NCBI GenBank assembly: GCA_018222405.1
Contig: JAAFAI010000003.1
Coordinates: forward strand, 186,001-250,000
Direction of reading: 5' to 3'
Source of the DNA: Gammaproteobacteria bacterium
GTDB taxonomy: Bacteria > Pseudomonadota > Gammaproteobacteria > Enterobacterales > Alteromonadaceae
Length of the DNA stretch: 64,000 nucleotides
The notes under the pieces were generated by a model that saw only the letters and a list, made by a program, of their open reading frames with translations, did no database searches and was not told the origin of the DNA. Shown here piece after piece: positions 32,833 through 63,705 of the stretch. Positions within the stretch are counted from its first letter, which is position 1. The number at the start of each line of letters is the position of its first letter. Both the position numbers and the translations under genes were made by a program.

Positions 32833-32850
32833 TCCTATGCATAAGCTTAC

Positions 32851-33265: not shown

Positions 33266-33290
33266 CAACTTTAACTGTTAGGAGTAATCC

Positions 33291-34121
33291 ATGAGTTTAT
33301 ATGTTAACACCAATGTGTCCTCTCTGAACGCACAGCGTCAGCTGTTTACTACCGGTAACGAACTGTCCACCGCATTTGAACGGTTATCTTCCGGTTTCCG
33401 GATAAATTCTGCCGCTGATGATGCTGCCGGCCTGCAAATTTCTGACCGTATGACCAGCCAGATCGAAGGGCTTAATATGGCGGTCAGAAACGCCAATGAC
33501 GGTATATCGCTAGCCCAGACTGCTGAAGGCGCCATGCAGGAAGTCACTACTGCCTTGCAGCGTATCCGAGTGCTGGCAATTCAGTCGCAAAACGGTATTA
33601 ATTCCTCGGCGGATCGCCTGGCACTGCAAAAAGAAGTGTCTGCGCTTAAAGCCGAAATATCGCGTATTGCATCAACCACACAGTTTGGCGGTGTGGATAT
33701 CTTAAGCGGCGGTTACTCGGCGAAGTTTCTGGTGGGCGCCAATGGCGGACAAACCATTAGTGTAAACATATCACGTTCCGGAGGGTTCGGTTTTTCAGGC
33801 CTCACCAGCGGTCAAAGTGATTTATCCGTAGCTAGCGCTGAGACGGCATCCGCCGCGTTAACCACTATTGATGCGGCGATTTCTGCGGTTGACGCCAAGC
33901 GCGCCGATCTGGGTGCAATTCAAAACCGCTTTCAGTCTACGATACGTAACCTGAGCAGTATTTCCGAAAATGTATCAGCGGCAAGATCGCGCATCCGGGA
34001 TACAGATTTTGCCACCGAGACGGCACAACTTACCCGCTATCAGATTCTGCAGCAGGCAAGCACAACTGTACTTTCGCAGGCGAATCAGCGGCCACAAGCA
34101 GCATTATCGTTACTGGGCTAG
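33291..34121 (+). CDS. fliC: flagellin 3
   Basis: The third flagellin has 276 residues, with the standard N-terminal ([38 protein letters not shown]) and C-terminal ([36 protein letters not shown]) helices and a short serine-rich middle. It pairs with flagellin 2 in the N-terminal D1 ([18 protein letters not shown]) and in [14 protein letters not shown] find no sigma28 or sigma54 site in the 458 bases before it and no good terminator after flagellin 2, so it may be read from the flagellin 2 promoter. AGGAG is six bases before the ATG. Confidence 0.96.
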   Translation: MSLYVNTNVSSLNAQRQLFTTGNELSTAFERLSSGFRINSAADDAAGLQISDRMTSQIEGLNMAVRNANDGISLAQTAEGAMQEVTTALQRIRVLAIQSQNGINSSADRLALQKEVSALKAEISRIASTTQFGGVDILSGGYSAKFLVGANGGQTISVNISRSGGFGFSGLTSGQSDLSVASAETASAALTTIDAAISAVDAKRADLGAIQNRFQSTIRNLSSISENVSAARSRIRDTDFATETAQLTRYQILQQASTTVLSQANQRPQAALSLLG

Positions 34122-34140
34122 ACTTAAAGAAATACCATAG

Positions 34141-34320
34141 AGGGTAGGAATTGAGAGGCCAACCCTTGCCAGGGACGGCGGCCGAAAGGCCACCATACAA
34201 GGATTAAAACGCCGACTAACAGAATTGAGAGTGTAGAATTTAAGGTTGAGAGGCCAGTATATTTCTACTATTCTGCCAGCCGACTGAAACTGAATTTGCT
34301 CAAACTCCTAACGTGAGCAA
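34141..34320 (+). ncRNA. structured 3' region after flagellin 3
   Basis: Two hairpins carry the same loop word TTGAGAGGCCA: AGGGT/ACCCT (34141-34145, 34162-34166) with the word at 34151-34161, and GTAGAA/TTCTAC (34233-34238, 34263-34268) with the word at 34246-34256. A GGCC-GAAA-GGCC hairpin lies between. A TGCTCA/TGAGCA hairpin follows just before the terminator, as after flagellin 1. It resembles the units after flagellins 1 and 2 but is expanded. Confidence 0.45.
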
Positions 34321-34323
34321 GTT

Positions 34324-34360
34324 GGCCGGGTCACTATTTGACTCGGCCTTTTTTATTTTT
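34324..34360 (+). terminator. strong intrinsic terminator after flagellin 3
   Basis: A 10-bp stem GGCCGGGTCA (34324-34333) and TGACTCGGCC (34339-34348), with one G-U pair and a 5-base loop, is followed by a long T-run. Confidence 0.92.
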
Positions 34361-34431
34361 ATTACCGAATCGTTTCCCGTCACTTACCCGAGTTGTTTTG
34401 CAACACTGGTGCCAGCTTTTCACTTTTCTCA

Positions 34432-34653
34432 CTAATTAACCGTACAGCCCTTATTTTGCGGCTTTTCAGCATAGTCTTCAGCAACGCTGGCGTTACTTAC
34501 TGATGCACACCTGACAAACTTTTGACGTGCATAAGCGGAGAATGCTTGCCAGATAGTGCCGCCCGGGCGGACAACTTTGCCGCCTGATATCTTCGTCACG
34601 CTTCCTTGGACTATGAACGCTTGTTGACGGGACTGTTTAAGCGCAGCGTACAT
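34432..34653 (-). CDS. hypothetical small protein, 73 aa
   Basis: This is the best ORF in the 951-base gap between flagellins 3 and 4. The product (beginning MYAALKQSRQQAFIVQG) is basic, with a Gly-rich turn (SGGKVVRPGG) and an aromatic helix (TIWQAFSAYARQ). It has no signal or membrane segment. There is no strong ribosome site and I do not recognise a family. It runs against the flagellins. The plus-strand ORF overlapping it looks like its shadow. It may be a gene or a remnant. Confidence 0.35.
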   Translation of the reverse strand: MYAALKQSRQQAFIVQGSVTKISGGKVVRPGGTIWQAFSAYARQKFVRCASVSNASVAEDYAEKPQNKGCTVN

Positions 34654-34853
34654 CTACCCGCTGACTCTTCCCGCCGGTGTTTACCCCAAAATTTTTACTC
34701 ACTAACACCTTATAAAGCAACCTGTGCGCGCTTAAAACGGCGCTGCCCGCGAGGTTTAAACGCGCAAATTGCAAAAAATAGATTTTTTATTTCTTTAAAA
34801 TCAGTGGTTTAGGTTTAATTTTGAATTTATTTAAATTTTTTTTCGAAAAAAAC

Positions 34854-34880
34854 TAAAGATTCTCAAGGTTGGGCCGATAC
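34854..34880 (+). promoter_or_regulatory. sigma28 promoter for flagellin 4
   Basis: The -35 TAAAGATT (34854-34861), 11-base spacer and -10 GCCGATAC (34873-34880) match sigma28 closely. Confidence 0.85.
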
Positions 34881-34886
34881 CTTTAG

Positions 34887-35072
34887 TTGAGGGGTAATTC
34901 ATTTGATGAATTGCGTAGTGGCTTAGAAGCGCTACAAAATGAGGTGGTTTAGCAATTGTTGTTGTGATGAATATCGCAACCAATGATTCAGTGCTAAATC
35001 AGGTACGAAAGATTATAGCTTAGCAGAGTCCGGGGGGATTCGGCTACAGGTATAATCCCAGGAGGTTAGATA
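34887..35072 (+). promoter_or_regulatory. long structured 5' leader of flagellin 4
   Basis: The leader is about 186 bases. At its 5' end TTGAGGGGTAATT (34887-34899) and GATGAA (34905-34910) are complementary to the flagellin 1 leader. The same stretch can fold on itself as AATTCAT/ATGAATT. Further on, TTTAGCA pairs with TGCTAAA, enclosing GTTGTGAT/ATCGCAAC. The ribosome site AGGAGG lies seven bases before the ATG. Confidence 0.5.
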
Positions 35073-35900
35073 ATGTCTTTATATGTAAATACAAACGTCT
35101 CGGCCCTGAATGCACAGCGTCAGCTTTTCGATGTGAGCAACAAGCTAAGCACATCATTTGAGCGTCTGTCTTCAGGTTTCAGAATCAACAGTGCGGCAGA
35201 TGACGCTGCCGGTCTGCAAATTTCAGATCGTATGACGTCGCAAATCCAGGGTCTTAACCAGGCCGTGCGAAATGCAAACGATGCGATTTCACTCACACAA
35301 ACAGCGGAAGGTGCCTTGTCAGAGGTGACGACCAGCTTGCAGCGTATTCGTCAGTTGGCAGTACAATCTCAAAACGGTATCAACAGTTCATCTGACCGTA
35401 TTGCCCTGCAAAAAGAAGTGTCAGCGCTGAAAACTGAAATGTCACGTATCGCTACGGATACTCAGTTCGGTGGTGTTGACCTGCTTAACGGCACCTACTC
35501 TGCTAAGTTCCTGGTGGGAGCCAATGGTGGGCAGACTATTTCTGTTAACCTGTCTCGTGCCGGTGGCGGTTATGGTACATCGGGCCTGTCTCTGGCGAAT
35601 TTGTCAGTGTCTTCAGTTGCCGGTGCTTCAGCAGCCCTGACATCCATTGATTCAGCTATCTCTACCATTGGTGGTGCACGAGCTGACCTAGGTGCCTTGC
35701 AAAACCGCTTTCAGTCGACTATTCGTAACTTAAGTAGCATTTCTGAAAACGTATCTGCCGCACGTTCTCGTATCCGTGATACAGACTTTGCGTCAGAAAC
35801 GGCTGAACTGACTCGTAACCAGATTATTCAGCAGGCGTCTGTTTCTGTTCTGAGTCAGGCTAACCAGCGTCCACAGACAGCGTTATCGCTGTTAGGTTAA
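35073..35900 (+). CDS. fliC: flagellin 4
   Basis: The fourth flagellin has 275 residues and all conserved ends ([70 protein letters not shown]). It is most like flagellin 1: [28 protein letters not shown] and [10 protein letters not shown]. The short Gly/Ser-rich middle ([19 protein letters not shown], about 167-185) has several candidate serine glycosylation sites. It is followed by flaG, fliD and fliS, so it may be the main flagellin of the cluster, but expression cannot be judged from sequence. Confidence 0.97.
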
Positions 35901-38672: not shown

Positions 38673-41128
<2,456 letters not shown>

Positions 41129-41132
<4 letters not shown>

Positions 41133-41833
41133 ATATTGCAGTGATCCCGGCCCGTGGTGGCAGTAAGCGGATCAAAGGAAAAAATGTCCGCCCTTTTGCC
41201 GGTAAACCGCTGATTGCTTATTCTATCGAGGCGGCAAAACAGTCTGGCGTGTTCGATGATATTGTGGTGTCGACCGATTCGCCCGAAATTGCCCGGGTCG
41301 CCAAAGCCTGGGGGGCAACGATGATCATTGAGCGGCCAGATGCGTTGTCGGACGACCATACCGGCACCTCGCCGGTGGTTCGCCATGCCATAGAAGGGTA
41401 TAGCGAAATCGTCGACAAACCGGATTTTGTGTGCTGCATCTATGCGACTGCCCCCTTCTTACAAGCTGATTTTCTGGCCGACGGGTTAGCTCGTTTGCAG
41501 GGAGCTCCGGCTATGCACTACGCCTTTTCGGTAACCACTTTCGACTTTCCCATTCAGCGCGCCATTCGGTTGGCAGGCGAGGGCGTTGAACCGGTGGATG
41601 CCGGTAATATGGGGATGCGCTCCCAGGATTTTGAAGAGTGCTACCATGATGCCGGTCAGTTTTACTGGGGGCACAGCAATGCCTGGTTAGCCCATCAGCC
41701 AATGTTTGCGCCGCATAGCATTCCGGTAGTATTGCCGCGCCATCTGGTGCAGGACATCGATACCATGGAAGACTGGACTCGAGCCGAACTGATGTACCTG
41801 GCCTATGTTAAAGGAGGCAGTGATGCACAGTAA
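41129..41833 (+). CDS. pseF: pseudaminic acid cytidylyltransferase PseF
   Basis: PseF activates pseudaminic acid with CTP to give CMP-Pse, the last step. The 234-residue protein has the CMP-nonulosonate signature IPARGGSKRIKGKNVRPF and the family segments VSTDSPEIA and CIYATAPFL. It starts at TTG 41129 within the pseC stop. A Shine-Dalgarno for pseI lies in its last codons. Confidence 0.95.
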
Positions 41834-42896
41834 CGGGCCGGCCAGTAAAATAAAGATTGGCAACCGTGAAATCGGTCGTGATACTGCGCCTTTTGTGATT
41901 GCGGAGCTAAGCGGTAATCACAGTCAGTCACTCGATACTGCGAGAGCCATGGTTAAAGCCGCCGCCGAGAGTGGTGCCCACGCCATCAAATTGCAGACCT
42001 ATACCGCCGACAGCATGACCCTCGATGTCATGGAAGCTGGTTTTGTTATTGAAGAAACCGATAGCCTCTGGCATGGCGCCAGCCTGTATAGCTTGTATCA
42101 AAAAGCAGCTACTCCATACGAGTGGCACAGTGAACTGTTCGACTATGCGAAATCGCTGGGGATGCTGGCCTTCAGTTCGCCCTTTGATGAGTCGGCGGTG
42201 GACTTCTTAGATGAACTGGACGTACCCTGCTTTAAAATCGCCTCCTTCGAATTAACTGACATTCCGCTAATCAAAAAAGCGGCCAGCAAAGGCAAGCCGC
42301 TGATCATGTCTACCGGGATGGCCAGTCTGAGTGAAATTGAGCTTGCGGTAGAGACCGCCAGAAACGCGGGTTGCGAAGAGATTATCCTGCTCAAATGCAC
42401 CAGTACGTATCCGGCTGAGCCGATAAACACTAATCTCAATACCATCCCCCATTTGCGCGACGCCTTTGGCTGTGAAGTGGGCCTCAGTGACCACACCGGT
42501 GGTATTGGTGCCGCGGTGGCCAGTGTGGCACTGGGGGCTAGCGTAATCGAAAAACACTTTGTACTGGATCGCAACGGCGGTGGCGTAGATGCGGCATTTT
42601 CACTGGAGCCGCAGGAACTTGCTGCGCTGGTAACAGAAACAGAACGGGCCTGGCAGGCGCTGGGACAAGTGAAGTACGGCGGTACCGTGGCAGAAGATAA
42701 AGCCAAACAATATCGCCGCTCTATATATGTGAGTCAGGATATTCAGCCGGGCGAACCGCTTGGCCCGAACAATCTGAAAATAGTTCGCCCGGCCTTTGGT
42801 CTGGCGCCAAAGCACTGGGATTATGTGTTGCATAAAAAAGCCAGTAGGTTTATCCGCAAAGGGACAGCCCTTAGCTGGGAGCATATCGGCGAATGA
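41823..42896 (+). CDS. pseI: pseudaminic acid synthase PseI
   Basis: PseI condenses the 6-deoxy-2,4-diacetamido-altrose with phosphoenolpyruvate, a NeuB-family reaction. The product from ATG 41823 has 357 residues with an N-terminal TIM barrel (VIAELSGNHSQSLDTARAMV, HAIKLQTYTADSMT, GLSDHTGG, EKHFVLDRNGGGVDAAFS) and a C-terminal SAF antifreeze-like domain. AGGAGG lies five bases before this ATG, so it is preferred to the upstream in-frame start at 41805. It overlaps pseF by 11 bases. Confidence 0.96.
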   Translation: MHSNGPASKIKIGNREIGRDTAPFVIAELSGNHSQSLDTARAMVKAAAESGAHAIKLQTYTADSMTLDVMEAGFVIEETDSLWHGASLYSLYQKAATPYEWHSELFDYAKSLGMLAFSSPFDESAVDFLDELDVPCFKIASFELTDIPLIKKAASKGKPLIMSTGMASLSEIELAVETARNAGCEEIILLKCTSTYPAEPINTNLNTIPHLRDAFGCEVGLSDHTGGIGAAVASVALGASVIEKHFVLDRNGGGVDAAFSLEPQELAALVTETERAWQALGQVKYGGTVAEDKAKQYRRSIYVSQDIQPGEPLGPNNLKIVRPAFGLAPKHWDYVLHKKASRFIRKGTALSWEHIGE

Positions 42897-43933
42897 GTGC
42901 TGTGCTATTTTGTACCGGCGGTTGCCGCGAAACCGGCATAGGCCATGTGATGCGTTGTCAGGCGCTTGCCCAGGCAGCAGCTGAACAAGGGCTGGATAGT
43001 TTGTTTGTTGTGAATGAGCCTGCCCGCCAATTTATCATTGAACGCCACGACTGGACGGGCCGGCTGATTTTAGCGGCCGATACCGAACAAGCCCTGGCCA
43101 GTCAGTTAACCGCTCTGGCCGCAGAGCATGCCGCGGTGGCCATTGTGCTTGATGGGTACGGTTTTAGCGAGTCGCTGCTGCGAGAGGTAAGTCACGCCGA
43201 TGCGCCGCTGGTGTTGCTTGATGACATCCGCCAACCGGGTTTTCAGTATGCTGACATTCTGTGTAACTCCGCCGGTGAAGCCTGGCGAGAGGAGTACACC
43301 CAGGCCAATCCGACCGCCATGCTATGTCTGGGGGCAAGATTCCGTTTACTGAGAAGAGAGTTTTCCGTTACCCAACCGTTACCGATTAATCAGCGTTTTA
43401 GTCTGACTATCAATATGGGAGGCAGCGATCCTTGCGGATTCACCTTACCGCTGCTCGAAGCGCTGACTGCCGCGCTGCCGGACGCGCCGTTAAGAGTGGT
43501 CACCGGTCCGGGCATGGCGGCGGATGCGCTTGATGCCTTAACCCGTTTCATTAACAAGAGTGATAGCGCGATTCAGCATGTACACAATTGTCAGGATATG
43601 GCCGATCTATGGATTAATGCCCGTCTTGCCGTGGTTGCCGCAGGCGGGAGTCAGTTTGAACTGGCGGCCTGTTTAACGCCTTCGGTGTTACTGACGGTAG
43701 CAGCAAATCAGCGCCAGGCGAGCCATGAAGCGGCCGGGCAGGACTGGTGTGAAGTTATGAATGCCGAAGACAATCTTGATTTAGATGCCCTGACAGCCAG
43801 CGTAAAAGCACTCTGGCAGGATGAAAGCCGCCTTGAAGCTATGTCCCGGGCGGCTTCTGAGGTCGCTGTCACCGATGGTGCCTGGCAACTGCTGGCTGCC
43901 ATTGCCGATTGGCGCAACAATCAGGCGGGGTAA
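42893..43933 (+). CDS. pseG: UDP-sugar hydrolase PseG
   Basis: PseG removes UDP from the bis-acetamido altrose intermediate before PseI acts. The 346-residue protein has a GT-B fold with the N-terminal GGCRETGIGHVMRCQALAQ and the MurG-like C-terminal NMGGSDPCGFTLPLLEAL and VAAGGSQFELAACL segments. It overlaps pseI by four bases (ATGA). Confidence 0.94.
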   Translation: MSAVLFCTGGCRETGIGHVMRCQALAQAAAEQGLDSLFVVNEPARQFIIERHDWTGRLILAADTEQALASQLTALAAEHAAVAIVLDGYGFSESLLREVSHADAPLVLLDDIRQPGFQYADILCNSAGEAWREEYTQANPTAMLCLGARFRLLRREFSVTQPLPINQRFSLTINMGGSDPCGFTLPLLEALTAALPDAPLRVVTGPGMAADALDALTRFINKSDSAIQHVHNCQDMADLWINARLAVVAAGGSQFELAACLTPSVLLTVAANQRQASHEAAGQDWCEVMNAEDNLDLDALTASVKALWQDESRLEAMSRAASEVAVTDGAWQLLAAIADWRNNQAG

Positions 43934-43934: not shown

Positions 43935-44513
43935 ATGTTAAGTGACAAGCCGGTTAACCATTTTTCGCTCAGCGCCTATCAGGTAGAGCTGCTGCCGATG
44001 ACACAAGCCCATCAGGGCCTGCTGCGCAGCTGGCGTAATCAGGATGAAATTCGCCGCCAGATGTTGTCAGATGAGCTCATAAGTGAAGAACAACAACAGG
44101 CGTGGTTCAAAAAAACGCAGCTCGACCCGAAACAATTGCACTGGGTAATTAAATTTCGTGACCAGTTAATTGGTGCGACCAACGTTAAATCACTGGAAAA
44201 TGGTAACACCGTGGCCGAGGCTAGCTTACTTGAACCCGGTTTGTACATTGGCGAGCGGCGTTATCAGGGCAATATTGTCGCCTTTGCCCCCACACTGGCC
44301 ATGTACGACTTTTGTTTCGACCAACTTGGCACCCAACGATTCCGGGCGGTAGTTAAGCGCAGTAATCAAAACGCTTTGAGTTACAATCAGAAGCTCGGTT
44401 ATGCCATTGTCGAAAATGAGGAGCTGATGGTGCTCGAGCTGGATGTGGAAAATTATCGCCAGGCCACAGCGCCGATTAAACAGTTTTTATCACGCACTCG
44501 CAACGCGAAATAA
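43935..44513 (+). CDS. pseH: GNAT N-acetyltransferase, PseH-like
   Basis: PseH acetylates the 4-amino group of the altrose intermediate with acetyl-CoA. The 192-residue protein is a GNAT/RimJ-type acetyltransferase with RSWRNQDEIRRQM, YIGERRYQGNIVAFAPT and VVKRSNQNALSYNQKLGY (acetyl-CoA site and the RSNxxA motif). The identity as PseH rests on its place in the pathway. GGGG is four bases before ATG 43935; the open frame extends further upstream inside pseG. Confidence 0.88.
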   Translation: MLSDKPVNHFSLSAYQVELLPMTQAHQGLLRSWRNQDEIRRQMLSDELISEEQQQAWFKKTQLDPKQLHWVIKFRDQLIGATNVKSLENGNTVAEASLLEPGLYIGERRYQGNIVAFAPTLAMYDFCFDQLGTQRFRAVVKRSNQNALSYNQKLGYAIVENEELMVLELDVENYRQATAPIKQFLSRTRNAK

Positions 44514-44527: not shown

Positions 44528-44770
44528 GTGGATACGCAACAACAATTACAACAAGCTTTTAGTGATGCGCTGGGGATCCCACCGGAAAAGATCACCGACG
44601 GACTCACTTACAATACCATCCCTGAGTGGGATTCTACGGCTCACATGGTGTTAATTGCTGAGTTAGAAAATGTGTTTGATGTGATGCTGGATACCGATGA
44701 CATTATTGACATGAGCTCGGTGGCTCAGGCCAAACTCATTTTACAAAAATACGATGTCAGCTTTGCCTAA
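44528..44770 (+). CDS. acyl carrier protein
   Basis: The 80-residue acidic helical protein has the phosphopantetheine attachment site Ser36 in EWDSTAHM and the following helix (LIAELENVFDVMLDTDDII). It carries an acyl group as a thioester on a 4'-phosphopantetheine arm. It is a dedicated ACP, not the housekeeping AcpP, since it sits between pseH and a FabG-like gene, with the ligase one gene further on. It starts at GTG 44528 and overlaps the next gene by 17 bases. Confidence 0.9.
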   Translation: MDTQQQLQQAFSDALGIPPEKITDGLTYNTIPEWDSTAHMVLIAELENVFDVMLDTDDIIDMSSVAQAKLILQKYDVSFA

Positions 44771-45518
44771 TACCGTTTTACAAAGTGCGTCTGTACTGGT
44801 TACCGGAGCAAGCGGCGGCATCGGCCAGGCGATTGTGGCCGCCTGCATAGAACGCGGTGCCACTGTGTTTGCCGGCGGACGCAACGAAGACGCGCTTGGC
44901 GCCATGCAGGAAACCTTTGGCAAAGCATTGCGGCCGCTGGTTTATGACGTGACCGACGAACTCGCGGTGAAAGATACATTCCGCCAACTGCAGCGCCAGG
45001 TTTCCGATGGCCTGGCTCCGCCGTTATTCGGGCTGGTGAATAATGCCGGGGCGATGCTCGAGTCGCCGTTATCGGTAACCAGCATGGACAAACTTAAACA
45101 GCAGCTCAATATTAACTTTCTCGCTCCTTATCAGCATATGCAACTGGCCAGCCGGTTAATGAGCCGCCTGCGCCGTGGCAGTATTGTAAATATTGTGTCG
45201 CAGGTCAGTGAGCAGGGTAGTAAAGGTATGAGCGCTTATGCGGCCAGTAAAGCAGCCCTGACTGGCGCAACCAAATCCCTGGCGAAAGAACTGGCCCCGG
45301 TGGGAATTCGGGTGAATGCGGTAGCCCCCGGTTTCATCGATACCCCGCTGACCGAACATTTTGATGACGAAGCCAGACAAAAAGTGCTGCAGCGAACGGT
45401 ATTGCAGCGTGCCGGTACTGCTAACGAAGTGGCTGACGCCGTACTCTATTTACTCTCCGAGCAGGCCGGTTATACCACCGGGCATGTGCTACCCGTTGAT
45501 GGACACTTTTGCCCATGA
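44754..45518 (+). CDS. FabG-like short-chain reductase (3-oxoacyl-ACP reductase family)
   Basis: The 254-residue SDR has the TGASGGIGQ dinucleotide motif, NNAG, the catalytic Ser of IVNIVSQVS and TyrxxxLys in MSAYAASKAAL, followed by the FabG-like VNAVAPGFIDTPLTEHF. It probably reduces a 3-oxoacyl group, giving a 3-hydroxyacyl thioester on the ACP encoded just upstream; the substrate is inferred. It overlaps the ligase gene by four bases (ATGA). Confidence 0.88.
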   Translation: MSALPNTVLQSASVLVTGASGGIGQAIVAACIERGATVFAGGRNEDALGAMQETFGKALRPLVYDVTDELAVKDTFRQLQRQVSDGLAPPLFGLVNNAGAMLESPLSVTSMDKLKQQLNINFLAPYQHMQLASRLMSRLRRGSIVNIVSQVSEQGSKGMSAYAASKAALTGATKSLAKELAPVGIRVNAVAPGFIDTPLTEHFDDEARQKVLQRTVLQRAGTANEVADAVLYLLSEQAGYTTGHVLPVDGHFCP

Positions 45519-46891
45519 GCCATGCAGAGCTAATGATCCCGTTTATTAAAGCCCACCGCCACTCAGAACATGTGGCACTGATGGATGACTCCGATAGTCT
45601 GACTTACCGCCAGCTAAGTGAGGCCGTAGAACGTCGAGCGCAAAACTGGCAGCAAATTGTTACCCTTCATCGCCCGGTGGTGATGATGCTCATTGATAAC
45701 AGTATCACCAGTGTGGTGGATTACTTAACCGCACTGAGTCTGGATTATGTGGTACTACTACTTAATCCCGAGTGTACGCTGGCCACCCGTGAACAATATG
45801 CACAGGCATTAATGCCCAATGCGGTAATTGGTGATGGCACTGTTACCCTTTTGCATAACGAACCACTGCCAACAGATGCCCGACTAAGCCTGTTGTTATC
45901 TACTTCCGGTAGCACCGGCGCCGGCAAGTGCGTGGCGCTCTCGCAACGTAACCTGAGGGCGAACTGTGATGCCATTTTAAAGTATCTGCCCATTGTGGCA
46001 GAGGATATTACGCTGGCTACCCTGCCGCTTAGTTATTCTTATGGCCTGTCGGTTTTGCACACGCATCTTAAAGCAGGCGCAACTATCTGTTTTACCCGCC
46101 ACAGTGTGTTTGATAAAGCGTTCTGGGAGGTGGTAAAAAGCCGTCCTGTAACATCGCTGGCGGGTGTGCCGTCTTTTTACGAAATGCTGCTTCGGCTGCG
46201 TTTTACCCGTATGGCATTACCGGCCCTTCGCTATTTCACTCAGGCCGGCGGTAAACTGGCCGAGGCCCATGTGACCAGCCTGGCCGAGTACGCAACACAA
46301 ACCGATAAAGCATTTTATGTGATGTACGGCCAAACCGAGGCCACCGCCCGTATGGCTTACCTGGCGCCGGATAAGGTATTGCAAAAGCCCGGTGCCATGG
46401 GGCAGGCGATTGCCGGAGGCGAGTTTAAGCTGACAGGCGCAAACCAGTCAGATGGTGAAGGAGAGCTTTGCTATCGCGGTGACAATGTTATGCTGGGCTA
46501 CGTCGCCGACGCAGCTGATTTGGCCGCATTTTCGCCATCTGAATGGCTGGCCACCGGCGATCTGGCAGTCTGTGACGCCGAGGGTGATTACACAATTACC
46601 GGCCGCACCAAGCGAATGATCAAAGTTGCCGGCGAACGGGTTAATTTGGATACCATGGAAAGCCGTTTTAGCACGGCAAAGATGGTGGTCCGGTGCATTG
46701 GGTCAGACGATAAGCTTACGGTGGTAGCACTGGCGACGCAGTTAGACGAGCTAATGGACTACATCAACAATCAGCAGATATTGCCGCGACGCAATATTCT
46801 TCTGGGGGTGGTGGAAGACTGGCCACTGCTGGCCAATGGAAAAGTTGATTATCAGCGTTTGCAGCAAATCCTGGTTGAGAAAACATGTTAA
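45515..46891 (+). CDS. AMP-forming acyl-CoA/acyl-ACP ligase
   Basis: The 458-residue protein is an ANL-superfamily ligase that activates a carboxylic acid with ATP. The P-loop STSGSTGAGK is at about 129-138, the A5 motif YGQTEATARM near 270, the A7 TGDLAV near 350 and A8 GRTKRMIKVAGERVN near 363. A terminal catalytic Lys is in LANGKVDYQRL. The substrate is not known, but the adjacent ACP and reductase make an acyl or hydroxyacyl group likely. The C-terminal domain is short. An in-frame TTG at 45509 is less likely than ATG 45515. Confidence 0.88.
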   Translation: MSHAELMIPFIKAHRHSEHVALMDDSDSLTYRQLSEAVERRAQNWQQIVTLHRPVVMMLIDNSITSVVDYLTALSLDYVVLLLNPECTLATREQYAQALMPNAVIGDGTVTLLHNEPLPTDARLSLLLSTSGSTGAGKCVALSQRNLRANCDAILKYLPIVAEDITLATLPLSYSYGLSVLHTHLKAGATICFTRHSVFDKAFWEVVKSRPVTSLAGVPSFYEMLLRLRFTRMALPALRYFTQAGGKLAEAHVTSLAEYATQTDKAFYVMYGQTEATARMAYLAPDKVLQKPGAMGQAIAGGEFKLTGANQSDGEGELCYRGDNVMLGYVADAADLAAFSPSEWLATGDLAVCDAEGDYTITGRTKRMIKVAGERVNLDTMESRFSTAKMVVRCIGSDDKLTVVALATQLDELMDYINNQQILPRRNILLGVVEDWPLLANGKVDYQRLQQILVEKTC

Positions 46892-49800
46892 AGAATATCA
46901 AACATCATATCGACGACGATGAGGCCATACAATCGGCGCTGGAATCGGAACTGGCGCATACGCTGCAGCTACGCTTAAAAGAAAATATCCAGGCGTTTCA
47001 ACGCAATATTCCTAGTCTGTTGCCATTTGTCAGAACATCGATGAGCCAGAATATATCGATATTCTGTAATAAAAACGGTCAGCCAAACATTGTCGATTAT
47101 GGACTTGGCCGCGTACTGTACGGATTTGATCCACAGCAGGAAGTCAGTGATCAGGTTAACCACTTCCTGGCGCATAGTCCCAGGGTTGAGCTGGATGCCG
47201 ACGTATTGGCTGATATTCCGGCCCGGGCCAGCAGCATCGACGTTGACGGGTATCAGCGTTTAATGAGTTATCCTCCGTTACCTGACACGGCGGATGTGGT
47301 GGTGGTACTGGGCATTGGTCTGGGCGAGCACATTAAACAGTTACTGGCCGCTCGGACGATTAAAAATCTGGTTATCTATGAGCCGGAGCCGCAGTATTTT
47401 TCATGCTCAACCATGATTGGGCACTGGAAGGATATTTTTAATCTTGCCAATCAAAAAGGCACCGCGTTATTTATTCAACTGGAAAAGGACGGCCGCGATC
47501 TCGTTGATGATATGGATGAGCTCAGAGCGCACGTCGACTTTGATGGCTTTTACGTTTATCAGCACTATAACAGCCCGATTTTTAATTCTATCGCCTGTGA
47601 TCTGCGCGAGCGTCCGTGGCCAGAAATTAAACGCAAAGGCCTGAATATACAAACGACGTATAAACGGCAAAGTTTTGAGCCGCTGTGGTTAGATAGTGTG
47701 GCCCTGGAAGGTGCAGAATTAGCCCGGAATTCAGAGCAGCGCTTCGCCAAAAACCTGGCCGCCTTTAAGCATTACTTTCCGGATATTTATAACGAATTTA
47801 AAGACTACACGCCTGATACCTGGCTGACGGTTAAGGTCAGTGACGATGACTACAACCTGCTTAACCATAAAAGCCTGCATACCTGGTATGGCGACTCCGC
47901 CCGGCAAGAGTCTGACGCCGCTTACAACGCCTATGCAACGCACCCAAACCGTGATGGGCTGGTACTTGGGTATAACGGCACCAAATTACGGCATTACCTG
48001 CATTACAAGTTTGTGCTGGAAAGTGAAACCTTACTGCACTCCATCAGCGAACGGAACGGGGCCTTACCCGACACCATTAAGTCATTAATTATGTTTGGCT
48101 TAGGCGCTGGTTATCAGTTGCAGGCCTTGCTAGAGCAGCATCAGGTTGAAAAACTCTTTTTGTGCGAACCGAACAAAGACTTTTTTTACGCTTCACTCTA
48201 TGCCATCGACTGGCACGATATATTGCATAAAGTCGATGACGCCGGGTATCGGATTTACATAAATATTGGCGATGACGGCACACACTTATTCCGCGATCTG
48301 TTGAATCAGTTTTATGCCATAGGCCCTTATAACCTGGCGCAAACCTACTTTTATCAGGTGTATTACAATGCCGAACTAAACGGTGCCATTGCGCAACTGC
48401 GGGAGCAGTTACAGGTGGTGATCTCCATGGGCGAGTATTTCGATCACGCCTATTATGGTATTAATCACACCGTCGAGGGTTTATGTCGTAATTATCCGCA
48501 CTTACGCAATAATCCACAGCGTTTTTTAGCGGCCAGCCAGCAGGAGTGCCCGGTATTTATTGTCGGCAATGGTCCGTCACTGGATTATTCAATCGAGGTG
48601 ATTAAAGAATATCGCGAGCAGGCTATTGTGGTTAGTTGTGGCACGGCGTTGCAGGTGCTGCACCGCCATAATATTGTGCCCGATTTTCATGCCGAAATTG
48701 AACAAAACCGTTCGACATTCGACTGGGCGGTCCGCCTGGGGGATTTTGACTACTTAAAACAAATTACGTTGCTGTCGTGTAATGGCATTCACCCGGATAC
48801 CTGTGAGCTGTATGCCAATACCCTGATTTGTTTTAAAGATGGCGAGTCGTCGACGGTGTCGAATTTAAATATTCTGGGCAAGGACAATTTTTCCATTTTA
48901 AAATTTGCCTTCCCCACGGTGAGTAATTTTACACTTAACCTGTTTACCACCCTGGGTTTTCAGCAGTTATATCTGTTTGGGGTGGATTTGGGCTTTATTG
49001 ATAAAACCCACCATCATTCCAAACTATCCGGTTACTATGATGAAAAGGGCGAACCGCTTTACGATTATGAGGAAAAGAACAATACCGGTTTAATTGTGCC
49101 GGGTAATTTTCGCTCCTCAGTTAGCACCAAACATGAGTTTAAGGTCTCAAAAATGTTTATTGAGGACCTGCTGCGCACCTATAAAGGCGACTGTTACAAC
49201 ACCAGTGACGGCGCTAAGATTATCGGTACGCAGCCGCTCCCAATCGATAATGTGCTGATATTGTCATCGCCGCAGAATAAGCAGGCCGCCCTGGCGGTCA
49301 TGCATCAAAAAGCTTTTGCAGAAGTAGGCCATAATGATTATCTGGTTCGCTTTAATGAGCGCTATCAGCACGCGCGGATGAAGCAGGAACTGGCCGTCAT
49401 GACGGATAAGATTAGTGCGGTCATCGACGGTGAACAGGATGTGATGTGGCTTATTGAATACCTTAAGACGGAGTTGTTTAAGTCATATTCACAAGGTCGT
49501 TCCTTACTGTTTTATTATCTCTATGGCACCCTGAACTTTGCCAATGCCTTTTTATTAAAAGTAACGGCGTCTGACAGTAGCGAAGAAGCTCAGCGCGATG
49601 CCCTGGCCATTTTACTCAGACGCTTTAAGCAGTTTTCGGCCAAAATAAATGCCGACTTCTACAGCTTTGATATTACCTCTTCTTTTGGCGGGCTAAGAGA
49701 GCGTGAATACTTACGCAAACTGGAAAATCCGCCTGTGATAACACTGACGCGCCATTATGGCGGCACAGAACAGCAGGTTGTGCTTAATTATGTTAACTGG

Positions 49801-50385
49801 TGGGAGCTTGATCCGCGTGAGCAGCCGGTGGCGGATCCCACGCAACACCTGGTTTATGCCGATAATACTGACTATCTCGATTCACTGCCTACAAGGTCAG
49901 GACAGTACCAGGGCATCCTGGCACTGGTTAACGATAATCTTGACTGGTCGCCGCCGCTAATAAATGGCCTGTCGTATAGTAAAACCGTACCGTTACCCGA
50001 TTTTGATGCCGATGAACAGGCCATCTGTGCCGGACATTTGCCGGTGCTCAACCTCGAAATGTACGAGGTTCTGATGAAAAAGTGTTACCTGTTAACCGAA
50101 CATACCCAATGGTTTATTCCGCGCTATAGCTTTGTCTCAGGCGGCAGGGATGTGGCGTTGCTTTGGTTACAGGAAATTGTTGAGAAATTACCAGCATGGG
50201 ATCGATTTATTGTATTTCCGGGCTATCTGGCGATTCCAAAGGATCCGCAGCATCCGGTGCTGGTCGACCGGCTCGGCAGTCGTGGTGAGTGGGTTCAGGA
50301 AAGACTGAATGCTGAGCACTTGCTTGGCGATACCTTAACACAGAAAGAATTTTTTAACTTAAAACGTCTTTTTCATAAAGCATAA
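46885..50385 (+). CDS. large Maf-type flagellin glycosyltransferase (DUF115 / MptE-like)
   Basis: Motility-associated factors transfer nonulosonic acids to flagellin Ser/Thr. The DUF115 core is clear from about residue 554, with CPVFIVGNGPSLDYSIE, the segment VSCGTALQVLHRHNIVPDFH and LYLFGVDLGFIDK with HHHSKLSGYYDEKGE. Upstream there are two related Rossmann-like modules: VVVVLGIGLGEHIKQLL (about 138) and LIMFGLGAGYQLQALL (about 402). At 1166 residues it is much longer than Campylobacter or Aeromonas Maf (about 600-700). It overlaps the ligase by seven bases. It is the best candidate to attach the sugar made by the pse genes. Confidence 0.85.
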   Translation: MLKNIKHHIDDDEAIQSALESELAHTLQLRLKENIQAFQRNIPSLLPFVRTSMSQNISIFCNKNGQPNIVDYGLGRVLYGFDPQQEVSDQVNHFLAHSPRVELDADVLADIPARASSIDVDGYQRLMSYPPLPDTADVVVVLGIGLGEHIKQLLAARTIKNLVIYEPEPQYFSCSTMIGHWKDIFNLANQKGTALFIQLEKDGRDLVDDMDELRAHVDFDGFYVYQHYNSPIFNSIACDLRERPWPEIKRKGLNIQTTYKRQSFEPLWLDSVALEGAELARNSEQRFAKNLAAFKHYFPDIYNEFKDYTPDTWLTVKVSDDDYNLLNHKSLHTWYGDSARQESDAAYNAYATHPNRDGLVLGYNGTKLRHYLHYKFVLESETLLHSISERNGALPDTIKSLIMFGLGAGYQLQALLEQHQVEKLFLCEPNKDFFYASLYAIDWHDILHKVDDAGYRIYINIGDDGTHLFRDLLNQFYAIGPYNLAQTYFYQVYYNAELNGAIAQLREQLQVVISMGEYFDHAYYGINHTVEGLCRNYPHLRNNPQRFLAASQQECPVFIVGNGPSLDYSIEVIKEYREQAIVVSCGTALQVLHRHNIVPDFHAEIEQNRSTFDWAVRLGDFDYLKQITLLSCNGIHPDTCELYANTLICFKDGESSTVSNLNILGKDNFSILKFAFPTVSNFTLNLFTTLGFQQLYLFGVDLGFIDKTHHHSKLSGYYDEKGEPLYDYEEKNNTGLIVPGNFRSSVSTKHEFKVSKMFIEDLLRTYKGDCYNTSDGAKIIGTQPLPIDNVLILSSPQNKQAALAVMHQKAFAEVGHNDYLVRFNERYQHARMKQELAVMTDKISAVIDGEQDVMWLIEYLKTELFKSYSQGRSLLFYYLYGTLNFANAFLLKVTASDSSEEAQRDALAILLRRFKQFSAKINADFYSFDITSSFGGLREREYLRKLENPPVITLTRHYGGTEQQVVLNYVNWWELDPREQPVADPTQHLVYADNTDYLDSLPTRSGQYQGILALVNDNLDWSPPLINGLSYSKTVPLPDFDADEQAICAGHLPVLNLEMYEVLMKKCYLLTEHTQWFIPRYSFVSGGRDVALLWLQEIVEKLPAWDRFIVFPGYLAIPKDPQHPVLVDRLGSRGEWVQERLNAEHLLGDTLTQKEFFNLKRLFHKA

Positions 50386-50432
50386 CTGAAAAAGTGATGG
50401 TGTAAGAGATACTGCAATATGGGGATAAGCCG

Positions 50433-51539
50433 GTGGCGAATCTAATGGCCGAAACACAAACGTCTCTACAGCAGCTGGAAGCGCTGTCTGATATGCCAGT
50501 ATATGGCATTGCTCAGGCTGATAAAGAACGGCTGTTAGGACAGTTACTGGTGTCATTGCATGCTCACCACCAGCAACAATGTAACGCTTACCGGCAGTTA
50601 CACGCTGAACCCTTGTCATTAGTTGCCGGTTTAAGTGAGCTACCCTATGTGGCGGTGCGTTTATTTAAACTGCTTGATTTAAAAAGTGTTAAAGACGAAA
50701 ACGTTTTAAAATGCCTGAGTTCATCCGGCACAACCGGTCAGGTGCCGGCGCGTATATACCTTGATGCCATGACCAGTCGCTGGCAGTCGAAAATCCTGGT
50801 TAAAATTCTGCAACAGTTTTTAGGTAAGCAACGTCTGCCTATGCTGATTATCGATTGCCCGGCAAGTCATATGAGCGGGGCTGCGCTGAATGCCCGTTCG
50901 GCCGGTATCCAGGGGCTGGCGATGTTTGGCCGCCATCATACCTACGCACTCAACGCTGATATGAGTCCAAACTGGGACGCTATCGATGCCTTTTGCCAAA
51001 AGTACCAACACGAACCGGTGCTGGTTTTTGGTTTTACCTTTATGATCTGGCAGTACTTTGTTAAATCGCTTCGCCAGCAAGGCCGCACGATTCGATTGCC
51101 CCACGGGCATCTTTTCCACAGTGGTGGTTGGAAGAAGTTACAGTCTGAAAGTGTTGATAATGCCACCTTCAGGCAGAATGTTGAGGCAGTAACGGGCATT
51201 GCCCGCGTCACCAATTTTTATGGTATGGCAGAGCAGGTAGGCACCGTATTTATGGAATGTGAGCAAGGCTATTTGCATGCGCCGTCAACTGCCGATGTGA
51301 TTATTCGCGATTGTTACGATTTACACGAACAGGCCACCGGCGAGCAGGGGCTGATTCAGGTTTTGTCAGCCTTACCGTTTTCATATCCGGGCTTTAGCAT
51401 ATTAACCGAAGATTTAGGCACCTTGCATGGCACAGACGACTGCGCCTGCGGCCGTAAAGGTAAATATTTTTCAGTACAGGGGCGTTTGCCCAAAGTTGAA
51501 TTGCGCGGTTGCAGCGATACTGCCGCCGCTGCGTTATAG
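50433..51539 (+). CDS. LuxE-like acyl-protein synthetase
   Basis: The 368-residue protein belongs to the LuxE/PaaK ANL group. LuxE activates a fatty acid as acyl-AMP, then carries it on its own Cys and passes it to LuxC. The P-loop SSSGTTGQ (96-103) and the FYGMAEQVG motif are present. Cys360 in ELRGCSD, nine residues from the end, corresponds in place to the acylated Cys near the LuxE C-terminus. The GTG start has GGGGA seven bases before it. It is followed at 12 bases by the LuxC-like gene. Confidence 0.85.
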   Translation: MANLMAETQTSLQQLEALSDMPVYGIAQADKERLLGQLLVSLHAHHQQQCNAYRQLHAEPLSLVAGLSELPYVAVRLFKLLDLKSVKDENVLKCLSSSGTTGQVPARIYLDAMTSRWQSKILVKILQQFLGKQRLPMLIIDCPASHMSGAALNARSAGIQGLAMFGRHHTYALNADMSPNWDAIDAFCQKYQHEPVLVFGFTFMIWQYFVKSLRQQGRTIRLPHGHLFHSGGWKKLQSESVDNATFRQNVEAVTGIARVTNFYGMAEQVGTVFMECEQGYLHAPSTADVIIRDCYDLHEQATGEQGLIQVLSALPFSYPGFSILTEDLGTLHGTDDCACGRKGKYFSVQGRLPKVELRGCSDTAAAAL

Positions 51540-51551
51540 TAGGGAAGTGAT

Positions 51552-52766
51552 GTGACTCAGCCTACGCATATTGAATACCAGCTTTCGGCGGCACAGACGC
51601 CTCAGCAAGTCAGCAGCATGGATCTACCTGGCATCGGCTCTCCGGTCGTGGTCAGGTTTTTACAGGCATTGTCTGAACGGTTGCTAAAGTCGCCCGAGGT
51701 GAAACCCTTTGCCGAGCTGATTGCCCTTGGCTTTTGGTTACGCGATTCTAAGCTCAGCCAATGGCTTAACATGTTAAAGCCGGACAATCCCAAAGCGATA
51801 ATCAAACCGGTTGGCTGTGTTGTTCATTACACCCCCAACAATGTCGATACCATGTTTATGTATAGCTGGATTTGCGCGTTACTGGCCGGCAACAATAATA
51901 TTGTGCGACTTGGCAGCAGCGAAAGTGCAGCAAAATCGTTATTGCTCAACATCCTTAAAGCATTGTTTGCAGAACCTGAGTTTCACCCCATCGCCGCGCG
52001 CAATATGTTGCTGTATTTTGCTAAAAGCTCGCCGTTGAATGCTGAGCTCGCGGGTTTGGCTGATGCCCGGATGTTGTGGGGGGGCGATGAGAGTATTAAC
52101 AACATCAGGCAATTTGTGAGCAAACCACGTTGCCGTGATATCAGTTTTGCTGATCGTTACTCAGTGGCTGTTATGCATCCAGGCGACACTGCGCAGCAAC
52201 CGTCGGCGCTTGAAAAAGCCGCACAACTGCTATGGCAGGACACCAAAGCCCATCATCAACTGGCCTGTTCGTCGCCGCGGGTGATTTTCTGGCTAGGGGA
52301 TCAGACCAGCCTGACTGCCTTTGCCGGGGTGCTCAATGCACAGGCAAAACATCAGGATACCGCCCCGGAACACTTAAACGGACAGTCGCGTACTAATGAA
52401 CATTTGATCACGGCACAATATTTACAAATGCAGGGTAAAGCGTCCGCGCCATTGTGTAATGAGCGAGTGTGCTTGTTACCCGTGACCCAAATAGACGAGG
52501 ATATGCTCGCTCAACACGGTGGCGATGGACTGTATTTTGTGAAACCGCTGGCGTCTCTGGATGAACTGGGCGCTGAATTGCCAGCGCGCGTGCAAACCCT
52601 GACCTACTGGGGCATTGAGCAGGACGCATTATTAAAGTTACTGATGGATCCGTCGATACAAGGAGTCGACAGGTGTGTTTCGGTTGGCAAAGCCCTTACG
52701 TTCGCACCTGACTGGGATGGTTACCGGTTGTTTACCGCCCTGACGCGATATGTCTATTTGGATTAA
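51552..52766 (+). CDS. LuxC-like acyl-CoA/acyl-protein reductase
   Basis: LuxC is an aldehyde-dehydrogenase-fold reductase that takes an acyl group on its Cys and reduces it to aldehyde with NADPH. The 404-residue protein has the LuxC segments VGCVVHYTPNNVDTMF, LLAGNNNIVRLGSSES and the active site HHQLACSSPRVIFW with Cys239. Start is GTG 51552 with AGGGA six bases before. With LuxE next to it, it forms a candidate fatty acid reductase pair; the other Lux genes (luciferase, LuxD) are not in the window. Confidence 0.87.
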   Translation: MTQPTHIEYQLSAAQTPQQVSSMDLPGIGSPVVVRFLQALSERLLKSPEVKPFAELIALGFWLRDSKLSQWLNMLKPDNPKAIIKPVGCVVHYTPNNVDTMFMYSWICALLAGNNNIVRLGSSESAAKSLLLNILKALFAEPEFHPIAARNMLLYFAKSSPLNAELAGLADARMLWGGDESINNIRQFVSKPRCRDISFADRYSVAVMHPGDTAQQPSALEKAAQLLWQDTKAHHQLACSSPRVIFWLGDQTSLTAFAGVLNAQAKHQDTAPEHLNGQSRTNEHLITAQYLQMQGKASAPLCNERVCLLPVTQIDEDMLAQHGGDGLYFVKPLASLDELGAELPARVQTLTYWGIEQDALLKLLMDPSIQGVDRCVSVGKALTFAPDWDGYRLFTALTRYVYLD

Positions 52767-63051: not shown

Positions 63052-63705
63052 ATGGAAATCGACCTGCTACGAAATTACCCTAAAACCAAACGTAATACAC
63101 AGGCTCGCAGTGAAGAAAAAACACCTGAAGTGCGAGCCATCGCCCGCCAGTTCGGTGCTGAATTTTTTGATGGTGATCGCCAGTATGGTTACGGTGGTTT
63201 TAGCTATAACCCGCGCTTCTGGCAGCCGGTCATCCCTGATATTAAGGCTCAATACGGGTTAAGTTCAGACAGTAAAGTACTGGATGTTGGGTGCGCAAAA
63301 GGCTTCTTCCTGTACGATCTGGCGCAAATTATTCCTGGGGTTACGGCCAAAGGCGTTGATATCTCAGAGTATGCCATTGCCAATGCCAAGCCTGAGGTGG
63401 CTGCTGATATGCAGGTTGCCTGTGCCACTGAACTGCCTTTTGAAGACAATAGTTTCGATTTGGTAATGAGCGTTAACACCGTACATAACCTTGAAAAAGA
63501 CGCCTGTGGTAAGGCGCTACAGGAAATTATGCGGGTCAGCCGAGGCAATGCATTTATCACCGTCGATGCGTATCGCGACGACGAAGAAAAAGCGCGTATG
63601 TATGAATGGAATCTGACGGCGAAAACTATTATGCATGTTGATGAATGGCAGGCGTTTTTCAAAGACGTCGGTTACACTGGCGATTATTACTGGTTTATTC
63701 CATGA
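63052..63705 (+). CDS. class I SAM methyltransferase
   Basis: The 217-residue protein has the SAM motif VLDVGCAKGFFLYDLAQ near 80, the acidic GVDISEYA and a post-motif LPFEDNSFDLVMSVNTVHNL. It methylates an unknown substrate, probably a sugar of the cluster. Its TGA overlaps the following ATG (ATGA). Confidence 0.85.
   Translation: MEIDLLRNYPKTKRNTQARSEEKTPEVRAIARQFGAEFFDGDRQYGYGGFSYNPRFWQPVIPDIKAQYGLSSDSKVLDVGCAKGFFLYDLAQIIPGVTAKGVDISEYAIANAKPEVAADMQVACATELPFEDNSFDLVMSVNTVHNLEKDACGKALQEIMRVSRGNAFITVDAYRDDEEKARMYEWNLTAKTIMHVDEWQAFFKDVGYTGDYYWFIP

What the first reader, a model, noticed from the sequence alone, without database searches (positions are those of the whole stretch)
44528..52766. 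LuxC/LuxE fatty-acid-reductase pair with its own ACP, reductase and ligase inside a flagellin glycosylation operon
Between the complete pse genes and the rest of the cluster lie an ACP (Ser36), a FabG-like SDR, an AMP-forming ligase, a LuxE-like synthetase (C-terminal Cys360) and a LuxC-like reductase (Cys239), with the Maf transferase in the middle. LuxE hands an acyl group to LuxC, which reduces it to an aldehyde. No luciferase genes are here, so the usual use (light) is excluded in this window. I infer either a hydroxyacyl group placed on the amino groups of pseudaminic acid, or an aldehyde- or alcohol-bearing modification of the flagellin sugar.
Basis: partly seen in the sequence, partly recalled or inferred. 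Interest (0 to 1): 0.75.

Follow-up and report, generated by a model that had tools for sequence, protein, structure and literature searches.

The report
Sugar-acylating cassette in flagellin glycosylation operon
Five genes that look like a light-producing fatty-acid reducer sit in a marine bacterium's flagellum-decorating operon, where they most likely make a small four-carbon hydroxy-acid tag for a flagellar sugar, a guess that would explain two unidentified masses measured on Aeromonas flagella and can be tested directly.

Summary
The five genes are real, intact and tightly packed behind a complete pseudaminic-acid (Pse) pathway. The set is not new: Aeromonas and Enterobacteriaceae flagellin islands have it, with a guess at a "liposugar". 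I think long fatty acids are not the likeliest product. The LuxE/LuxC pair scores closer to RfbN-type LuxE-LuxC fusions, linked in print to the tetronate (dihydroxybutanoate) group of the Vibrio cholerae O1 antigen, than to the luminous enzymes. In the window's genus the cassette and a divergent PseH occur in the same 25 of 59 genomes; elsewhere it often sits with other sugar N-acyltransferases. Best model: LuxE/LuxC reduce a carboxyl of a small acid to an aldehyde, a dehydrogenase makes the alcohol, ligase and ACP activate the hydroxyacid, PseH puts it on Pse. Dihydroxybutanoyl in place of one acetyl gives 376.148 Da; Aeromonas AH-3, which has the set, shows 376.14 Da plus an unknown 102 Da unit (C4H6O3 = 102.032). 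Substrate, product and acceptor are unproven.

The parts
38977..39990 (+). pseB, UDP-GlcNAc 4,6-dehydratase (inverting)
   Evidence: NCBIfam TIGR03589, 560.5 bits over cut-off 407.75
39987..41132 (+). pseC, aminotransferase that makes the 4-amino group
   Evidence: TIGR03588, 512 bits over cut-off 423.5
41129..41833 (+). pseF, CMP-Pse synthetase
   Evidence: TIGR03584, 313.7 bits over cut-off 205.7
41826..42896 (+). pseI, pseudaminic acid synthase (the listed ORF opens at 41805; the later start is my choice)
   Evidence: TIGR03586, 496.3 bits over cut-off 340.25
42893..43933 (+). pseG, UDP-sugar hydrolase
   Evidence: TIGR03590, 169.9 bits over cut-off 153.55
43953..44513 (+). pseH-like GNAT, proposed acyltransferase for the cassette's product (listed ORF opens at 43821; the start at 43953 is my choice)
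   Evidence: TIGR03585 61.7 bits, below cut-off 93.1; in the model of the 206-residue frame residues 1-13 have pLDDT under 50; best fold match H. pylori PseH 4ri1; same 25 of 59 genomes as luxC
44528..44770 (+). acyl carrier protein, Ser36 pantetheine site
   Evidence: PF00550; Ser36 invariant in 26 of 26
44754..45518 (+). SDR reductase, proposed to reduce the LuxC aldehyde to the alcohol
   Evidence: PF13561/PF00106; Ser149, Tyr162, Lys166 invariant in 26 of 26
45509..46891 (+). AMP-forming ligase, proposed to load the hydroxyacid onto the ACP
   Evidence: PF00501; best-scoring stand-alone ligase in the PDB search is oxalate-CoA ligase 5ie0, after multidomain peptide synthetases
46885..50385 (+). 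Maf flagellin glycosyltransferase (between ligase and luxE here)
   Evidence: PF20157 E 1e-119, PF01973; between ligase and luxE in 6 of 25 cassette loci of the genus, window included
50433..51539 (+). LuxE-like carboxylate-activating acyl-protein synthetase, Cys360
   Evidence: PF04443 E 8e-49; Cys360 invariant in 25 of 25; 7xc6_E E 7e-22
51552..52766 (+). LuxC-like acyl reductase (ALDH fold), Cys239
   Evidence: PF05893 E 2e-28; Cys239 invariant in 26 of 26; top fold match 7xc6_A

Best explanation
The five genes plus their own pseH form a portable acyl-donor cassette. LuxE adenylates a carboxyl group of a small polar acid, most likely a C4 dicarboxylic acid such as malate, and hands the acyl group through Cys360 to LuxC Cys239. 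LuxC reduces it to a semialdehyde and the SDR reduces that to the alcohol, giving 2,4- or 3,4-dihydroxybutanoate. The AMP-forming ligase loads the other carboxyl onto the ACP, and the divergent PseH transfers the dihydroxybutanoyl group to the 4-amino group that PseC made (N-7 of the finished pseudaminic acid; that numbering is recalled). Maf then puts the acylated Pse on flagellin. Shown: the genes, conserved catalytic residues, linkage to this PseH type in the genus, the wider link to amino-sugar loci, and closer scores to RfbN-type fusions than to luminous enzymes. Inferred: substrate, product, order of steps, and the site.
For: (1) Linkage: luxC and the window-type pseH (E at most 2.3e-30; next best 6.2e-15) occur in the same 25 of 59 genus genomes, while PseI is in 58 of 59. 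(2) Natural replacement: L106/L107 keep the pse operon (PseI 89%, PseB 89-90%, PseC 82%) but have a different 155-159-aa GNAT and none of the five genes before a flagellin-like gene. (3) PseH of two cassette-free loci scores 120.3 and 113.3 bits, over the cut-off of 93.1; the window's scores 61.7. (4) Away from pse genes, 11 of 21 complete sets have a PglD/NeuD-type gene and 4 a PseH-type gene within 9.5 kb, 11 of 21 a DegT-type aminotransferase (4 of the 11 PglD loci had trained the profile). In L164 the set lies between a DegT aminotransferase and a PglD-type transferase, with rmlB and rmlC upstream. (5) The cassette LuxE profile gives RfbN-type fusions 270-274 bits, the luminous 7xc6 LuxE 81 and three presumed luminous LuxE 70-79; LuxC 123-126 against 53. 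Loci with the fusion have ACP, ligase and Fe-alcohol dehydrogenase beside it, as in V. cholerae O1: VC0249 RfbL (substrate given as 2,4-dihydroxybutanoic acid), VC0250 Fe-ADH, VC0251 RfbN; RfbN is tied in print to tetronate. (6) Gene fusions: ligase-LuxE in two genomes, LuxE-LuxC in L209. (7) Masses: 376.148 calculated against 376.14 reported, and 102.032 for the unknown 102 Da unit, in A. piscicola AH-3, a strain with the set; A. caviae Sch3 is reported with plain Pse5Ac7Ac.
Against: Five Firmicutes cassette loci carry a PseH that groups with two canonical ones, one of 46 pse-linked sets has no PseH-type gene nearby and 6 of 21 others match neither acyltransferase profile, so cassette and special acyltransferase are not linked everywhere. 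Five of the 15 cassette-free loci I fetched hold a shorter carrier-like, SDR, ligase and PseH module without LuxE/LuxC, so the SDR may act as a ketoacyl reductase. Four loci lack the SDR. The 376 Da value is given to two decimals and other compositions fit; O-methylglyceroyl is an isomer. A. hydrophila AH-1 shows 403 Da, not explained here. No substrate was tested. V. cholerae O1 sequences were not in hand; that kinship rests on architecture and published names. The 25-of-59 linkage is not corrected for shared ancestry.
Confidence: 0.48

Rival explanations
1. The cassette makes the small hydroxyacyl donor, but its acceptor is another amino sugar or hydroxyl of the longer glycan, not pseudaminic acid.
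For: In AH-3 the 102 Da unit is lost with fgi-1, so it lies beyond the linking sugar. Five Firmicutes cassettes go with canonical-type PseH. In three close relatives the DNA match to the window stops at the same base inside the ligase (46651); beyond it LuxE and LuxC have no DNA match and only pieces of Maf or the sulfatase-type gene do, at 63-68%.
Against: The 376 Da linking sugar stays in the fgi-1 mutant, so its extra mass does not belong to the outer chain. pseH stands next to the ACP in the window and all 24 fetched genus loci, and in the genus the cassette was seen only with this PseH type.
Confidence: 0.22
2. Published view: a fatty-acid (liposugar) component; LuxE/LuxC reduce a long-chain acyl group to a fatty aldehyde or alcohol attached to the glycan.
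For: Family names and the authors' suggestion for Aeromonas and Enterobacteriaceae islands; LuxC folds like the fatty acid reductase 7xc6 and LuxE matches its LuxE chain.
Against: Octanoyl to myristoyl in place of one acetyl would give 400-484 Da, not 376. LuxE/LuxC score low against the luminous models and structures. The best stand-alone ligase match is oxalate-CoA ligase, which is weak evidence.
Confidence: 0.12
3. The ACP, ligase and SDR make a 3-hydroxybutanoyl donor as in other sugar loci; LuxE/LuxC serve another step.
For: Five cassette-free loci of the genus have a carrier-like protein, SDR, ligase and PseH without LuxE/LuxC; FdhC, solved with a 3-hydroxybutanoyl product, is among the fold matches of the window PseH.
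Against: Pse with 3-hydroxybutanoyl would be 360.15 Da, not 376.14. Ligase and LuxE are fused in two genomes, and 67 of 80 named loci keep all five genes.
Confidence: 0.1
4. The sugar carries a free aldehyde, or an amine made from it.
For: LuxC is a reductase of the aldehyde-forming kind.
Against: A reductase gene is in most sets; a semialdehyde acyl would give 374.13 Da; no extra aminotransferase belongs to the five-gene block.
Confidence: 0.04

Closest known systems
Group II flagellin glycosylation island of Aeromonas (orf1-orf2-orf3, luxE, luxC after pseH)
   Same: Same five kinds of gene; PMC7874193 reports Group II in 98 strains. Seven named Aeromonas loci here (L152, L153, L158, L160, L162, L180, L184) read pseH-ACP-SDR-ligase-LuxE-LuxC.
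   Different: In the window Maf lies between ligase and luxE, all pse genes are in one run, and the gene after luxC is a sulfatase-type gene, not the fgi-1 glycosyltransferase.
RfbK-RfbL-RfbM-RfbN tetronate genes of the Vibrio cholerae O1 antigen
   Same: Carrier, AMP-ligase, alcohol dehydrogenase, LuxE+LuxC; acyl group on an amino sugar.
   Different: There LuxE and LuxC are one protein and the dehydrogenase is iron-containing; here two proteins and an SDR. The O1 sequences were not compared; fusion loci L232, L233, L264, L265 were.
Bacterial bioluminescence fatty acid reductase LuxC-LuxE (PDB 7xc6)
   Same: Same fold for LuxC, aligned cysteines in both.
   Different: Low scores, shorter LuxC (404 against 477 residues), and the genome's one PF00296 match lies outside the window.
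PseH of Campylobacter and Helicobacter
   Same: Best fold match 4ri1; profile match to 4xpk; same operon place.
   Different: Below the PseH equivalog cut-off and apart from the canonical ones of the genus in a quick tree.
sfm cluster of Shewanella oneidensis MR-1
   Same: Polar flagellin modification cluster with a predicted 3-oxoacyl-ACP reductase.
   Different: Its other members include a TPP enzyme, a methyltransferase and an ATP-grasp protein.

Membership tests
Aeromonas-type Group II cassette (ACP, SDR, ligase, LuxE, LuxC with pse genes) | All five genes together behind pseH | tested here: met
LuxE acyl-protein synthetase (PF04443) | Family score over cut-off and C-terminal acyl-accepting Cys | tested here: met
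   167 bits over 24.9; Cys360 aligned with a Cys of 7xc6_E
Long-chain LuxE/LuxC of luminous bacteria (NCBIfam NF052244, NF052251) | Equivalog score over cut-off | tested here: not met
   54.1 against 550 and 35.1 against 750 bits
LuxC acyl reductase (PF05893) | Family score, ALDH fold, catalytic Cys | tested here: met
   99.8 bits over 21; 7xc6_A top fold match; Cys239 aligned with a Cys of 7xc6_A
Tetronate-type (RfbK-L-M-N) acyl pathway | Carrier, AMP-ligase, alcohol dehydrogenase, LuxE and LuxC beside an amino-sugar pathway with an N-acyltransferase | tested here: met
   by kind of enzyme only; the dehydrogenase class differs (SDR here, Fe-ADH in L232)
Tetronate-type (RfbK-L-M-N) acyl pathway | Sequence kinship to V. 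cholerae O1 RfbN itself | tested here: inconclusive
   Full-length fusion in 4 of 329 genomes of that family, which are unnamed, so O1 could not be picked out; fusions score 270-274 bits with the cassette LuxE profile
Tetronate-type (RfbK-L-M-N) acyl pathway | Product is a dihydroxybutanoyl group | not testable with these tools
   Only published Aeromonas masses fit
PseH equivalog (TIGR03585) | Score over 93.1 bits | tested here: not met
   Window 61.7 bits. 26 of 26 cassette PseH match the model, best E 1.5e-22; a 113.3-bit match had E 1.1e-32, so I infer that none of the 26 reaches the cut-off

The most novel reading that the evidence does not exclude
A widespread modular acyl-writing cassette turns a central-metabolism dicarboxylic acid into a dihydroxybutanoyl (tetronate-type) group and hands it to whatever sugar N-acyltransferase lies beside it: PseH on flagellar pseudaminic acid, PglD/NeuD-type enzymes on other amino sugars. 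It would explain both the 376 Da Pse derivative and the unknown 102 Da unit of Aeromonas AH-3 by one C4H6O3 group.
Probability: 0.38. Interest if true: 0.75.

Novelty: new variant of a known kind. Interest (0 to 1): 0.58.

Why it matters
The set is found in flagellin islands of several bacterial groups and has been left in print as fatty acid synthesis genes, perhaps for a liposugar. [quoted passage not shown] Such groups could change the charge and antigenicity of flagella (inference).

Tried and rejected
Light production: rejected, since PF00296 matches only one gene in the genome, outside the window, and LuxE/LuxC fail the luminous equivalog cut-offs. E. coli genomes with a known O-antigen structure: no DNA match for the window pair or the fusion. 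V. cholerae O1 as a direct yardstick: not reached, the genomes being unnamed. Plasmids: 80 records with matches to the fusion, all under 60% identity, not followed. Prior claim in print that links LuxE, tetronate or dihydroxybutanoate to pseudaminic acid: of 3 papers with at least 3 of 6 terms none held 'pseudaminic acid' together with 'tetronic acid' or 'dihydroxybutan', 'dihydroxybutanoyl' occurred 0 times in the 15 listed of 201 papers; two searches listed only the two island papers I cite and one Dickeya genome paper that I did not open. The library lacks most subscription papers, so this does not show absence. The primary AH-3 mass paper was not held. The LuxC model confirmed the fold but cannot tell chain length. 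The PglD profile was trained on five sequences, four of them from loci then counted: without these 4, 7 of 17 non-pse sets match. Background: 86 matches of the NeuD/PglD model at E 1e-6 or better in 8 genomes of about 34 Mb, about 0.05 per 19 kb; these 8 genomes were chosen from the 11 with a hit.
Full report
What is there. Between pseH and the next glycan genes lie an ACP (44528-44770), an SDR (44754-45518), an AMP-forming ligase (45509-46891), a Maf glycosyltransferase (46885-50385), a LuxE-like synthetase (50433-51539) and a LuxC-like reductase (51552-52766), all on the + strand, overlapping or at most 47 bases apart. Pfam confirms each, the ACP only just. NCBIfam confirms pseB, pseC, pseF and pseI and pseG above their cut-offs; pseH is the one step of the Pse pathway that fails its cut-off (61.7 against 93.1 bits). 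Four flagellins, fliD and fliS are upstream, so this is a flagellar glycosylation region. A sulfatase-type gene, a HAD-type gene, methyltransferase-type genes and sugar epimerase-type genes follow.

Catalytic residues. ACP Ser36, SDR Ser149/Tyr162/Lys166, LuxE Cys360 and LuxC Cys239 are invariant in 26, 26, 25 and 26 aligned sequences (L120 was left out of the LuxE set because my script cut its frame short). The two cysteines align with cysteines of Photobacterium 7xc6; that these carry the acyl group is recalled family knowledge. The modelled window LuxC (mean pLDDT 88.4) has 7xc6_A as its best solved match.

Host. From this I take the host as Alteromonas-type; the window genome itself is unnamed.

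Linkage inside the genus. Of 59 genomes searched, luxC is in 25, a close pseH (E at most 2.3e-30) in the same 25, and PseI in 58. Ten further genomes have only weak PseH matches (6.2e-15 or worse). In the window and the 24 other cassette loci, all fetched, the order is pseH-ACP-SDR-ligase-(Maf)-LuxE-LuxC, Maf lying inside in 6 of 25. I fetched 15 loci from the 34 genomes without luxC. Two, L106 and L107, keep a pse operon close to the window's (PseI 89%) and then have a different short GNAT and a flagellin-like gene; that GNAT of L106 scores 29.6 bits with the PseH model. Five (L108, L109, L111, L112, L117) hold a shorter module of carrier-like protein, SDR, ligase and PseH without LuxE/LuxC (Pfam knew the carrier of L111 but not those of L109 and L112; L108 and L117 were judged by order only). 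The other eight have other arrangements that I did not resolve. The pseH of L109 and L112 passes the canonical cut-off. So the acyl step of this operon is exchanged as a unit, and LuxE/LuxC go with one version of it. The 25/25 match is not corrected for ancestry.

PseH tree. Of 53 sequences (45 with cassette, 8 without), 39 cassette PseH form a group without any cassette-free member (SH-aLRT 87, drawn open); 38 of them are from Proteobacteria or from the unnamed kin, one (L154) from Bacillota. Five Firmicutes cassette PseH group with L109 and L112 (98); L147 stands alone; the other six cassette-free ones lie in two further groups. It is a quick tree with several long branches flagged. Left out: L108 (a fragment), and two of the 21 named loci that I picked, which gave no sequence. 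The window PseH model (pLDDT 90) matches H. pylori PseH best by E-value; FdhC, solved with a 3-hydroxybutanoylamino sugar, is at rank 34 with query TM-score 0.72, the highest in the 50 rows shown, shared with 2qml.

Beyond the genus. With my profiles, 67 of 80 have all five genes; the other 13 lack one or more, some near a contig end. Of the 67, 46 have PseI- or PseG-type genes within 9.5 kb, 45 of these with a PseH-type GNAT. Of the 21 others, 11 have a PglD/NeuD-type gene, 4 a PseH-type gene, and 6 neither (one of the 6, L191, has a GNAT before the ACP by Pfam); 11 of 21 have a DegT-type aminotransferase. L164 reads rmlB, rmlC, aminotransferase, ACP, SDR, ligase, LuxE, LuxC, PglD-type transferase, which would suit a dTDP-4-acylamido sugar (inference; the aminotransferase is below the cut-off of each NCBIfam model it matched). 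Record titles include Firmicutes, Sphingomonadales and Bacteroidetes. Ligase and LuxE are fused in two genomes (G147, seen as L216 and L235; G427, L226), LuxE and LuxC in L209. Four loci (L134, L139, L140, L188; three Paraglaciecola and one other Alteromonadaceae) keep PseH, ACP, ligase, LuxE and LuxC but no SDR in the block.

The RfbN link. In the order, LuxE (PF04443) is in 51 of 394 genomes and in 0 of 14 control genomes. In one family, which I infer to be Vibrionaceae, and in one genome of another, an 825-827-residue LuxE-LuxC fusion follows a ligase and an iron alcohol dehydrogenase, with a 77-residue ACP before the ligase, beside nonulosonic-acid-type genes (in L232 my ORF filter did not show the ACP). 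In print, V. vulnificus lists a 77-residue ACP, RfbN and a NeuC homologue among its genes (passage of PMC11264103). The V. [quoted passage not shown] RfbL is said to activate 2,4-dihydroxybutanoic acid (passages of PMC12208996); the O1 perosamine is acylated with tetronate (passages of PMC3441752); and a LuxE domain in RfbN is tied to tetronate synthesis (passage of PMC4772473, citing Morona 1995, which I did not see). Malate as the start of the route is my inference. The cassette LuxE profile gives the fusions 270-274 bits, the luminous 7xc6 LuxE 81 and three LuxE that I presume luminous 70-79; for LuxC the fusions give 123-126, 7xc6 53 and one presumed luminous LuxC 53.

Masses. Passages of PMC7874193 and part 1 of 2 of its Discussion give a 376.14 Da Pse derivative and an unknown 102 Da unit in A. 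piscicola AH-3, a Group II strain, and show that 376 Da remains when fgi-1 is deleted. Pse5Ac7Ac is 316.127; exchanging one acetyl for dihydroxybutanoyl gives 376.148, and the acyl increment itself is 102.032. Other formulas fit within 0.025 Da, and O-methylglyceroyl has the same formula, so this is a fit, not a proof. A. caviae Sch3 is reported with plain Pse5Ac7Ac (passages of PMC9290775); PMC7874193 says that Sch3N and AH-1 lack glycosyltransferase genes between the pse genes and names the fatty-acid-type genes for Group II, but the part I read does not say outright that Sch3N lacks the five genes. A. hydrophila AH-1 shows 403 Da (passages of PMC4691044), which this model does not explain.

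Judgement. What is new here is the reading as a tetronate-type donor cassette with a dedicated N-acyltransferase. I put 0.48 on a small hydroxyacyl donor acting through this PseH, with dihydroxybutanoyl the likeliest group.

Noticed in passing
window 46651: Three relatives (L097, L098, L099) are 83-93% identical to the window from 38001 to exactly 46651, inside the ligase gene; beyond it LuxE and LuxC have no DNA match (proteins 48-49% and 26-28% identical) and only parts of Maf or the sulfatase-type gene match, at 63-68%. The shared break suggests a recombination edge.
   Followed up: partly
L088 and L120 (SDR): In two cassettes the SDR is only 36-38% identical to the window's while the ACP stays at 59-64%, as if another reductase had been recruited.
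   Followed up: no
L266, L268, L269: Loci with LuxE, LuxC, ACP and ligase beside a NeuB-like gene and a protein that looks TPP-dependent by eye: perhaps another acyl or sugar route.
   Followed up: no
L270, L271: A stand-alone LuxE-like protein of about 400 residues near a NifS-like gene (by eye) and a ligase-like gene, with no sugar genes that I recognised.
   Followed up: no
window 30827-35900: Four flagellin genes in a row (274-276 residues) precede fliD.
   Followed up: no
window 63645-64000: An open frame that looks like a TPP-dependent E1-type enzyme (by eye) runs off the window end, so the glycan cluster may go on.
   Followed up: no
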